Position numbers and translations under genes: made by a program
Source of the DNA: Thermoleophilaceae bacterium
GTDB taxonomy: Bacteria; Actinomycetota; Thermoleophilia; Solirubrobacterales; Thermoleophilaceae
Assembly: GCA_036378175.1 (NCBI GenBank)
Contig: DASUWY010000032.1
Location: 1 to 53,281, forward strand
DNA length: 53,281 bases
Direction of reading: 5' to 3'
Shown here: piece after piece, positions 21,629 through 23,640 of the stretch
How positions within the stretch are numbered: the first letter of the stretch is position 1
Layout: each line of letters opens with the position of its first letter
The notes under the pieces: model-generated
The model's input: only the letters and a program-made list of their open reading frames with translations
Told to the model about the DNA's origin: nothing
Database searches by the model: none

Positions 21629-22435
21629 CTACCGAAGCAGCGACAGGACGCTGTTCGGAAGCTGGTTGGCCTGCGACAGCATGCTCGTGCCGGCCTGCTG
21701 CAGGATCTGGTCCTTGGTGAAGTCGACCATCTCGCTGGCCATATCGACGTCACGGATCTGCGACTCCGATGCGGTCAGGTTCTCCTGGTAGGTGGCGAGG
21801 TTGTTGATGGTGTGCTCGAGACGGTTCTGCACTGCACCGAAGTCGGCACGCTGAGCAGAAACCGCGTTGATCGCATCGTCGATCTGCGAGATGTCGGACG
21901 TGCCGGTGAGGCTAAGCGAGAAGACGCTGGTGCTCACGGCCTGGCCGAGGCTGATCGTCGACACCGCGATCGTGTCGCCGTCGTTGGCGCCGATCTGGAA
22001 CGTGATCGAGCCGTTGCTGGCGAGCAGTGAGATGCCGTTGAAGGCGGCCGCCTGGCCGATGCGCTCGATCTCCGAACCGAGCTGGTTCACCTCGGACTGA
22101 ATCGCCGTGCGGTCGTCCGTGGAAAGGGTGCCGTTCTTGTACTGGACGGCGAGGTCGCGCACGCGCTGGAGCATGGCGTGCACCTCGTTCATCTGGCCCT
22201 CAGCCGTCTGGACGAGCGAGATGCCGTCCTGGGCGTTGCTGTTGGCCTGGGCGAGGCCGCCGATCTGCGCACGCAGCTTCTCGCTGATCGCGAGGCCGGC
22301 GGCGTCATCAGCGGCGGTGTTGATGCGGTAGCCCGACGACAGGCGGGCCATCGACTGCTGCAGCTTTGCGCTGGTCGAGTTGAGGTTGCGCTCGGCGTCG
22401 AACGCAGCGATGTTGTTCTGAATGCGAAGGGACAT
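21629..22435 (-). CDS. fliC: Flagellin (copy 1)
   Basis: 268 residues. D0/D1 N-terminal region MSLRIQNNIAAFDAERNLNS, SMARLSSGYRINTAADDAAG, ISEKLRAQIGGL; C-terminal D1/D0 region ending in LSQANQLPNSVLSLLR. The middle is only about 70 residues, so D2/D3 are essentially absent. About 16 of 268 positions differ from copy 2, mostly in the short central part. Exported by the type III apparatus and polymerised into the filament. Has its own sigma-28-like promoter and a leader with a GGA-loop hairpin and Shine-Dalgarno AAGGAGA. Confidence 0.95.
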   Translation of the reverse strand: MSLRIQNNIAAFDAERNLNSTSAKLQQSMARLSSGYRINTAADDAAGLAISEKLRAQIGGLAQANSNAQDGISLVQTAEGQMNEVHAMLQRVRDLAVQYKNGTLSTDDRTAIQSEVNQLGSEIERIGQAAAFNGISLLASNGSITFQIGANDGDTIAVSTISLGQAVSTSVFSLSLTGTSDISQIDDAINAVSAQRADFGAVQNRLEHTINNLATYQENLTASESQIRDVDMASEMVDFTKDQILQQAGTSMLSQANQLPNSVLSLLR

Positions 22436-22469
22436 CGTTCATCTCCTTGATGACGTTGGTGTTTGTCCC

Positions 22470-22490
22470 GAGGCAACTCCCTGTCACCTC
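22470..22490 (-). promoter_or_regulatory. Flagellin 1 leader hairpin, candidate CsrA site
   Basis: In the mRNA an 8-bp stem (22490-22483 with 22477-22470, two G-U pairs) carries loop AGGGA, giving ACAGGGA, which matches the ACARGGA core of CsrA sites. A second GGA is in the Shine-Dalgarno at 22446-22444. The same hairpin with compensatory changes precedes flagellin 2. Confidence 0.6.
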
Positions 22491-22506
22491 GTAAAGCCAG
22501 CCGGGT

Positions 22507-22532
22507 TAATCGGAGCCGGCCGAGTCGTTTGA
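22507..22532 (-). promoter_or_regulatory. Sigma-28-like promoter, flagellin 1
   Basis: TCAA (22532-22529), 16 nt, CGATTA (22512-22507) on the minus strand; predicted start about 65 nt before the ATG. Confidence 0.65.
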
Positions 22533-22623
22533 AGGGGGCCTGGACGGCTGTTCGAGGGGTGGGCTGCCACAGGTCCGCGCCGAGCGGATCGCAGCCCTCC
22601 CCACTCCTCCTCCCAACTGGAAA

Positions 22624-22645
22624 AGGCGGGCCCGAAGGCCCGCCT
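22624..22645 (-). terminator. Rho-independent terminator after flagellin 2
   Basis: On the minus strand a 9-bp stem (AGGCGGGCC with GGCCCGCCT) closed by a UUCG tetraloop and followed by TTT. Lies about 80 nt after the flagellin 2 stop and isolates it from flagellin 1. Confidence 0.8.
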
Positions 22646-22726
22646 CTTCCTTGATCCGTCCCTCGAGGTGGCTCAAACCTCGATGGTTATGTTCGCCCCT
22701 GAATCGGAGCGTTATGAGGCTCCGAG

Positions 22727-23533
22727 CTAACGGAGCAGCGACAGAACCGAGTTGGGCAGCTGGTTGGCCTGCGAGAGCATGCTCGTGCCGGCCTGCTGCA
22801 GGATCTGGTCCTTCGTGAACTCGACCATCTCGCTGGCCATGTCCACGTCCCGGATCTGCGACTCCGACGCGGTCAGGTTCTCCTGATACGTCGAGAGGTT
22901 GTTGATGGTGTGCTCGAGACGGTTCTGCACCGCGCCGAAGTCGGCACGCTGAGCAGAAACCGCGTTGATCGCGTCGTCGATCTGCGAGATGTCGCTCGTG
23001 CCGGTGAGGCTAAGCGAGAACACGTTGGACGCCACGGCCGTGCCGAGGCTGATCGTCGACACTGCAATCGCGTCGCCGTCGTTGGCACCCACCTGGAAGG
23101 TGATCGTGCCGTTGTTGGCGAGCAGGGAGATGCCGTTGAACGCCGCGGACTGGCCGATGCGCTCGATCTCCGACCCGAGCTGGTTCACCTCGGACTGAAT
23201 CGCGGTGCGGTCGTCGGTGCTGAGCGTGCCGTTCTTGTACTGAACAGCCAGGTCACGCACACGCTGAAGCATCGCGTGAACCTCGTTGAGCGAACCCTCA
23301 GCGGTCTGGACGAGCGAAATGCCGTCCTGAGCGTTGCTGTTCGCCTGGGCGAGGCCGCCGATCTGGGCACGCAGCTTCTCGCTGATGGCGAGGCCAGCGG
23401 CGTCGTCGGCCGCCGTGTTGATGCGGTAGCCCGAAGAAAGACGAGCCATCGACTGCTGGAGCCGGTTGCTCGTCGCGTTCAGGTTACGCTCGGCATCGAA
23501 CGCGGCGATGTTGTTCTGAATACGAAGGGACAT
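22727..23533 (-). CDS. fliC: Flagellin (copy 2)
   Basis: 268 residues, same length and architecture as copy 1 and about 94% identical by eye; differences cluster at residues 20-24, in GSLNEV versus GQMNEV, and in the central part (LLANNGTITFQVGANDGD). Conserved D0 ends (MSLRIQNNIAAFDAERNL; ANQLPNSVLSLLR). Own promoter, leader hairpin and terminator, so the two copies are tandem duplicates kept as separate units with similar but not identical leaders. Ser/Thr in the short exposed region would be the natural glycosylation sites. Confidence 0.95.
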   Translation of the reverse strand: MSLRIQNNIAAFDAERNLNATSNRLQQSMARLSSGYRINTAADDAAGLAISEKLRAQIGGLAQANSNAQDGISLVQTAEGSLNEVHAMLQRVRDLAVQYKNGTLSTDDRTAIQSEVNQLGSEIERIGQSAAFNGISLLANNGTITFQVGANDGDAIAVSTISLGTAVASNVFSLSLTGTSDISQIDDAINAVSAQRADFGAVQNRLEHTINNLSTYQENLTASESQIRDVDMASEMVEFTKDQILQQAGTSMLSQANQLPNSVLSLLR

Positions 23534-23570
23534 CGTTCATCTCTCCTTGATGACGTTGACATTGAGTCCC

Positions 23571-23591
23571 CGGGCAACTCCGTGTTGCCCG
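23571..23591 (-). promoter_or_regulatory. Flagellin 2 leader hairpin, candidate CsrA site
   Basis: Perfect 8-bp stem (mRNA CGGGCAAC, 23591-23584, with GTTGCCCG, 23578-23571) and loop ACGGA. Second GGA in the Shine-Dalgarno at 23546-23544, 35 nt downstream; in flagellin 1 the distance is 34 nt. Confidence 0.6.
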
Positions 23592-23613
23592 TACTGCGGT
23601 GCTGCAGGCGGAG

Positions 23614-23640
23614 TAATCGACCGCCGTTCCGCCGCATTCA
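23614..23640 (-). promoter_or_regulatory. Sigma-28-like promoter, flagellin 2
   Basis: TGAA (23640-23637), 17 nt, CGATTA (23619-23614) on the minus strand. The -35 lies in the loop of a small GC stem (23630-23646) that may also end the cheB transcript. Confidence 0.6.

What the first reader, a model, noticed from the sequence alone, without database searches (positions are those of the whole stretch)
22436..23613. Covarying GGA-loop hairpin in both flagellin leaders, a CsrA-type switch
Near each predicted 5' end is an 8-bp stem with a 5-nt loop, A(G/C)GGA. Four stem pairs differ between copies (C-G to G-C, G-C to A-U, C-G to U-G, A-U to G-U) yet pairing is kept, while the loop GGA is unchanged. 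ACAGGGA fits the CsrA core ACARGGA. A second GGA lies 34-35 nt downstream in the Shine-Dalgarno. This is the two-site arrangement of Bacillus hag, where CsrA blocks translation until FliW releases it. I know of no description in this type of actinobacterium.
Basis: partly seen in the sequence, partly recalled or inferred. Interest (0 to 1): 0.78.

Follow-up and report, generated by a model that had tools for sequence, protein, structure and literature searches.

The report
Flagellin leader switch for CsrA–FliW
Both flagellin genes start with a conserved RNA fold that very probably lets the protein CsrA switch flagellin production off until FliW frees it: a switch known in Bacillus and Campylobacter, here shown by sequence evidence across a group of actinobacteria where I found no published description.

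Summary
Each flagellin leader has an 8-bp hairpin with GGA in its loop; chance gives this in at most 1 of 5000 shuffles. In relatives (order Solirubrobacterales) it occurs in 41 of 43 stand-alone flagellin leaders, with real covariation. The Shine-Dalgarno GGA sits in the loop of a second small hairpin (34/43 against about 2 expected).

The genome has fliW and csrA side by side, upstream of a third flagellin. FliW occurs in 23 of 25 flagellin-bearing relatives and in none of the 76 others. The fliW-linked CsrA keeps N55, the residue FliW needs, in 13/13 cases; a second, stand-alone CsrA has it in 3/30. Eleven flagellins inside fliW–csrA operons, and the flagellin of a genome without FliW, lack the first hairpin.

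This is the architecture proven for Campylobacter flaA and functionally for Bacillus hag: CsrA bridges both loops and blocks translation; FliW relieves it. I rate it a new member of a known kind. One feature may be new: a GGGAC:GUCCC helix pairing the leader with the start codon and Ser2 codon (TCC in 27/27 stand-alone genes, 2/11 others). Protein binding is inferred, not shown.

The parts
22470..22490 (-). SL1 of flagellin A leader: 8-bp hairpin, loop AGGGA (22482-22478), GGA 22480-22478; proposed first CsrA site
   Evidence: Sequence; 1/5000 shuffles; covariation in relatives; model R1 E 5.6e-21 in the window
22439..22453 (-). SL2 of flagellin A leader: TCATC-AAGGA-GATGA, Shine-Dalgarno GGA (22446-22444) in the loop; proposed second CsrA site
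   Evidence: 34/43 leaders against about 2 with shuffled flanks; 12/80 control starts
22464..22469 (-). 5' strand of proposed helix P3 (GGGACA), directly 3' of SL1
   Evidence: MFE fold; duplex test
22429..22434 (-). 3' strand of proposed helix P3 (UGUCCC: start codon and codons 2-3)
   Evidence: MFE fold; Ser2 codon TCC 27/27 against 2/11
21629..22435 (-). Flagellin A, 268 aa
   Evidence: Pfam Flagellin_N and Flagellin_C
22506..22532 (-). Sigma-28-like promoter of flagellin A: TCAA-N14-TCCGATTAA
   Evidence: Sequence; family-wide TNAA-N15-NNCGAT pattern; this copy has a spacer of 14 and does not match the strict pattern
23571..23591 (-). SL1 of flagellin B leader: 8-bp hairpin, loop ACGGA (23583-23579), GGA 23581-23579
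   Evidence: Sequence; 0/5000 shuffles; R1 E 1.3e-23 in the window
23537..23553 (-). SL2 of flagellin B leader: TCATC-AAGGAGA-GATGA, Shine-Dalgarno GGA (23546-23544) in the loop
23566..23570 (-). 5' strand of proposed helix P3 (GGGAC)
23527..23531 (-). 3' strand of proposed helix P3 (GUCCC)
22727..23533 (-). Flagellin B, 268 aa, 94% identical to A
23614..23640 (-). Sigma-28-like promoter of flagellin B: TGAA-N15-GTCGATTA
22621..22645 (-). Intrinsic-terminator-like hairpin after flagellin B (AGGCGGGCC-TTCG-GGCCCGCCT-TTT), so flagellin A probably has its own transcript
   Evidence: Read directly from the sequence

Best explanation
Each flagellin mRNA starts with a leader made from a sigma-28-type promoter and holding two GGA-loop hairpins: SL1 near the 5' end and SL2 around the Shine-Dalgarno. 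When unexported flagellin is abundant it holds FliW, and free CsrA (most likely the fliW-linked paralogue, CsrA2) bridges both loops as a dimer and hides the Shine-Dalgarno. When flagellin is exported, FliW is freed, binds CsrA2 through N55 and opens the mRNA. Shown here by sequence: both hairpins, their conservation and covariation, fliW-csrA in the genome, co-occurrence and N55. Inferred from Bacillus and Campylobacter: binding, repression and FliW release. A third helix (leader GGGAC with GUCCC at the start codon) may close the initiation region in this order (about even odds).
For: SL1 score >=6 in 36/55 leaders against 0.12 expected; GGA is by far the favoured loop triplet, 36 against 6 for the next. 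SL1: 7 of 8 pairs change on both sides, covariation 0.372 against 0.140, 0/500 shuffles. SL2 in 34/43 against about 2 with shuffled flanks and 12/80 at other gene starts, p 2e-12. Invariant AAGGAG and near-invariant ANGGA loops. GGA spacing 22-42 nt. csrA and fliW in the genome, adjacent and upstream of a third flagellin. FliW in 23/25 flagellin-bearing genomes and 0/76 others; across the phylum 48/49 flagellin-bearing genomes outside the order have FliW and 48/49 CsrA. N55 in 13/13 fliW-linked CsrA, 3/30 stand-alone CsrA, p 1.5e-8, and in all 16 readable CsrA of flagellin-bearing actinobacteria outside the order. N55 is essential for FliW binding (PMC7829508). Flagellins without a promoter of their own lack SL1. 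C. jejuni flaA has the same two ANGGA stem-loops with proven CsrA binding (PMC4894983).
Against: No binding, expression or structure-probing data exist for this organism. Leaders of related genes are not independent, so raw counts overstate significance. Some of SL2 follows from Shine-Dalgarno self-complementarity (15% of control starts reach the threshold). SL1 mostly has a 5-nt loop, where the high-affinity CsrA motif has 6. Two paralogous leaders (G092:4581519, G098:55937) have lost the SL1 GGA loop.
Confidence: 0.88

Rival explanations
1. SL1 is a 5' hairpin that only stabilises an abundant mRNA against ribonucleases; the GGA is incidental.
For: It lies near the predicted 5' end and the stem is strong.
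Against: A stabiliser does not need an invariant GGA loop: the stem changes while ANGGA does not. It does not explain SL2, the link to FliW, or the absence of SL1 in the genome without FliW and CsrA2 (G050).
Confidence: 0.05
2. The leader is a CsrA target, but of the stand-alone CsrA1, which FliW probably cannot control; flagellin would then follow general metabolism.
For: CsrA1 is in the genome and keeps R44 and L4; nothing in the RNA alone says which paralogue binds.
Against: CsrA1 is widespread in relatives without flagella, whereas the hairpins go with fliW-csrA2. Flagellated actinobacteria outside the order have, with one exception, a single CsrA, with N55 in all 16 read.
Confidence: 0.1
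3. Conserved shape by descent or chance in GC-rich leaders, with no regulatory role.
For: The leaders are related and GC-rich.
Against: Shuffles with the same dinucleotides give 0.12 hairpins against 36; compensatory changes exceed all 500 shuffles and all slid versions.
Confidence: 0.02

Closest known systems
Campylobacter jejuni flaA 5'UTR (SL1 + SL2, CsrA-FliW; PMC4894983)
   Same: Two stem-loops, ANGGA in both loops, the second over the ribosome-binding site, compensatory changes in relatives, FliW in the genome, flagellin gene, sigma-28 promoter.
   Different: Campylobacter has hexaloops 21 nt apart; here mostly pentaloops 22-42 nt apart. Here there is a possible third helix to the start codon and a second CsrA that lacks N55.
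Bacillus subtilis hag leader (CsrA-FliW; PMC7652899, PMC6529632)
   Same: Two CsrA sites in the flagellin leader, one on the Shine-Dalgarno; fliW and csrA adjacent; CsrA N55.
   Different: Different phylum; the genome here has a second csrA; several flagellin genes carry the leader, and one flagellin sits in the fliW-csrA operon without SL1.
Clostridioides difficile fliC-fliW-csrA (PMC8523840)
   Same: The same three-protein circuit controls flagellin.
   Different: The leader architecture was not compared here.

Membership tests
CsrA-FliW-controlled flagellin leader (hag/flaA type) | Two GGA motifs in the leader, one overlapping the Shine-Dalgarno | tested here: met
CsrA-FliW-controlled flagellin leader (hag/flaA type) | GGA presented in hairpin loops (ANGGA), supported by compensatory changes | tested here: met
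   SL1; SL2 by enrichment:
CsrA-FliW-controlled flagellin leader (hag/flaA type) | Inter-site distance that one CsrA dimer can bridge (optimum 18 nt, flaA 21 nt) | tested here: met
   22-42 nt, 34 and 35 in the window; the optimum is from PMC4894983. Whether the longest spacings are bridged was not tested
CsrA-FliW-controlled flagellin leader (hag/flaA type) | CsrA with RNA-binding residues (position 4, R44) in the genome | tested here: met
   CsrA2 has I4 rather than L4
CsrA-FliW-controlled flagellin leader (hag/flaA type) | FliW in the genome, linked to csrA, with CsrA N55 for FliW binding | tested here: met
CsrA-FliW-controlled flagellin leader (hag/flaA type) | CsrA binds the leader and represses translation | not testable with these tools
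   Needs gel shift, toeprint and reporter assays
CsrA-FliW-controlled flagellin leader (hag/flaA type) | FliW binds flagellin and antagonises CsrA | not testable with these tools
   Needs purified proteins or mutants
Any described Rfam family | Match to an Rfam covariance model | tested here: not met
   No Rfam family hits the leaders above chance

The most novel reading that the evidence does not exclude
In this order the switch has a third, coding-sequence element: GGGAC next to SL1 pairs with GUCCC made of the start codon and codons 2-3, enclosing SL2. The flagellin N-terminal codons are then under RNA-level selection, and CsrA locks a closed three-helix initiation region in place of two free hairpins. 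Alongside, two CsrA paralogues are split into a FliW-responsive one (N55) and a FliW-blind one kept in species without flagella.
Probability: 0.5. Interest if true: 0.6.

Novelty: new member of a known kind. Interest (0 to 1): 0.5.

Why it matters
It extends a flagellin feedback switch proven in Firmicutes and Campylobacter to Actinobacteria, where FliW and CsrA genes are near-universal in flagellin-bearing genomes but where I found no described RNA target. It gives precise, testable target sites, and natural paralogues (CsrA with and without N55; flagellins with and without SL1) to ask which CsrA does what.

Tried and rejected
Rfam: no match. Genome-wide use of the leader model R1 to find further CsrA targets: beyond flagellin leaders the best hits (27 bits and below) lie at unrelated genes or inside reading frames, so no regulon is claimed. 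P3 covariation in genomes whose codon 2 differs (GGC, GCC): per leader it is mostly within shuffles, and with the linker shuffled a P3 of >=4 pairs still forms in 25 of 42 against 36 observed (one search used a wrong shuffle boundary and was replaced), so P3 is kept as probable only. RNAalifold on the full alignment finds SL1 but pairs AGG of the Shine-Dalgarno with CCU of codons 2-3 instead of P3: an alternative that cannot be excluded, because those columns do not vary. P3 outside the order: no signal. CsrA2 autoregulation through its own Shine-Dalgarno hairpin: 5/13, inconclusive. P3 pairs could not be counted on MAFFT alignments because variable linkers misalign.

Full report
WHAT IS THERE. 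The window is contig C32 of a 4.29-Mb genome in 89 contigs. Named near relatives of its flagellin are Solirubrobacteraceae such as Svornostia abyssi, so I place it in or near Solirubrobacterales. Two flagellin genes (268 aa, 94% identical; Pfam Flagellin_N and Flagellin_C) lie on the minus strand downstream of cheB and cheA. In 5000 dinucleotide shuffles of each leader, a hairpin as good was seen once and never. An intrinsic-terminator-like hairpin follows the upstream flagellin gene (22645-22621, read). Each gene has a sigma-28-like promoter: TGAA-N15-GTCGATTA for the 23533 gene, and a weaker one with a 14-nt spacer for the 22435 gene. Across relatives TNAA-N15-NNCGAT is found in 28 of 43 stand-alone leaders against 0.1 by shuffling, with the spacer peaked at exactly 15. 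Two FliA/WhiG sigma factors are in the genome.

SECOND HAIRPIN. The Shine-Dalgarno GGA is itself in a loop: TCATC-AAGGA-GATGA, and TCATC-AAGGAGA-GATGA in the other copy. A stem scoring >=4 is present in 34 of 43 stand-alone leaders, against about 2 when the flanks are shuffled and 12 of 80 other gene starts in these genomes (Fisher p 2e-12). In other species the stem letters differ (CGATC/GATCG, CAAC/GTTG, TTCC/GGAA) while AAGGA stays.

CONSERVATION. Of 101 genomes (this one and its relatives), 25 have flagellin. I extracted 55 flagellin leaders. Eleven belong to flagellins directly downstream of csrA in a fliW-csrA-fliC operon and one to a genome without FliW (G050). Of the remaining 43, 41 have a GGA-loop hairpin. 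One exception keeps the stem with loop ATGAG, and one is degenerate. Strict hairpins (score >=6) number 36 of 55 against 0.12 expected; the next best loop triplet gives 6. On 40 distinct leaders, 7 of 8 stem pairs change on both sides, with covariation 0.372 against 0.140 shuffled, 0 of 500 shuffles, and well above all slid versions (inner pairs again on another alignment). A covariance model (R1) finds the flagellin leaders with E below 1e-8 and nothing coherent beyond them. Relatedness inflates these counts; the compensatory changes are the stronger evidence.

THE PROTEINS. The genome has one fliW (C19:19683-20138), directly followed by csrA2 (C19:20179-20409) and a third flagellin, with a flgL-like gene upstream, and a separate csrA1 on C12. 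FliW matches solved FliW (5dmb) and CsrA2 matches solved CsrA. FliW is in 23 of 25 flagellin-bearing genomes and none of the other 76; CsrA in general is in 82 of 101, flagella or not. Across the phylum, of 49 flagellin-bearing genomes outside the order 48 have FliW and 48 CsrA. Residue N55 of CsrA is needed for FliW binding in C. jejuni and B. subtilis and was identical in all FliW-containing species examined there (PMC7829508). It is N in 13 of 13 fliW-linked CsrA2, in 3 of 30 CsrA1 (p 1.5e-8), and in all 16 CsrA that could be read from flagellin-bearing actinobacteria outside the order. So FliW most likely acts through CsrA2.

BEYOND THE ORDER. In 61 flagellin leaders of other actinobacteria, GGA hairpins upstream of the Shine-Dalgarno reach score >=5 in 19 against 0.6 by shuffling, mostly with six-base loops. 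Similar hairpins appear in Bacillus, Clostridium and Treponema hits, not in the proteobacterial ones. The arrangement is therefore old and widespread. What I did not find in the open literature is a description in Actinobacteria; the survey of actinobacterial flagella names CsrA and FliW only once each, among the searched proteins (PMC10746217). Most subscription papers are not covered.

POSSIBLE THIRD HELIX. Folding the window leaders gives, directly after SL1, GGGAC paired with GUCCC, made of the start codon and codons 2-3 and enclosing SL2. Folding 41 distinct leaders one by one gives SL1 in 41, SL2 in 37 and a P3 of at least 3 pairs in 40. Leader-start duplex energy averages -10.0 against -6.5 kcal/mol with shuffled linkers and -6.5 with starts of a different codon 2. 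Ser2 is encoded by TCC in 27 of 27 stand-alone genes but in 2 of 11 operon-type or FliW-less genes, with TCC about 22% of serine codons in window genes; across genera codon 2 is the only fully fixed synonymous choice among codons 2-20 in stand-alone genes. Against: shuffled GC-rich linkers also pair often (25 of 42 against 36 observed), single variants are mostly not significant, and RNAalifold prefers pairing the Shine-Dalgarno with CCU of the same codons. I rate P3 as about even odds. It shows no signal outside the order.

MECHANISM. The best reading is the CsrA-FliW-flagellin feedback loop. CsrA bridges SL1 and SL2 and hides the Shine-Dalgarno; secretion of flagellin frees FliW, which removes CsrA. 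In C. jejuni flaA both stem-loops with ANGGA loops were shown to bind CsrA, by mutation, gel shift and footprint, and their structure is conserved by compensatory changes (PMC4894983); in B. subtilis CsrA binds two hag sites, one on the Shine-Dalgarno (PMC7652899). Works like: very likely. Member of that kind: every feature testable by sequence is met; binding, repression and antagonism are untested. The flagellin inside the fliW-csrA2 operon lacks SL1 and is probably controlled differently.

VERDICT. It is a new member of a known kind, with a possible order-specific addition (P3) and a clear paralogue split that make good experiments.

Noticed in passing
L001 1501-1734 (G000:C12:61599): A second, stand-alone CsrA without N55, present in most relatives including those without flagellin; its targets and any antagonist are unknown.
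   Followed up: partly
L002 1744-2556 (G000:C19:20425): A third flagellin directly downstream of fliW-csrA2, without SL1 or a sigma-28-like promoter; eleven operon-type flagellins of this kind were found in this genome and its relatives.
   Followed up: partly
L041 (G092:C1:4581519) and L045 (G098:C30:55937): Natural variants: one leader keeps the SL1 stem but its loop is ATGAG without GGA, the other is degenerate; both are in genomes with other, intact flagellin leaders.
   Followed up: no
L044 (G074:C1:2320800-2330000): An array of nine flagellin genes in one genome, nearly all with their own SL1 and SL2.
   Followed up: no
L022 (G050:C21): A relative with a flagellin gene but no FliW and no fliW-linked CsrA; its flagellin leader has neither hairpin. 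Whether it has working flagella was not checked.
   Followed up: partly
L002 1474-1498 and L053: The csrA2 Shine-Dalgarno is in a small GGA-loop hairpin in 5 of 13 genomes, which might mean autoregulation.
   Followed up: partly
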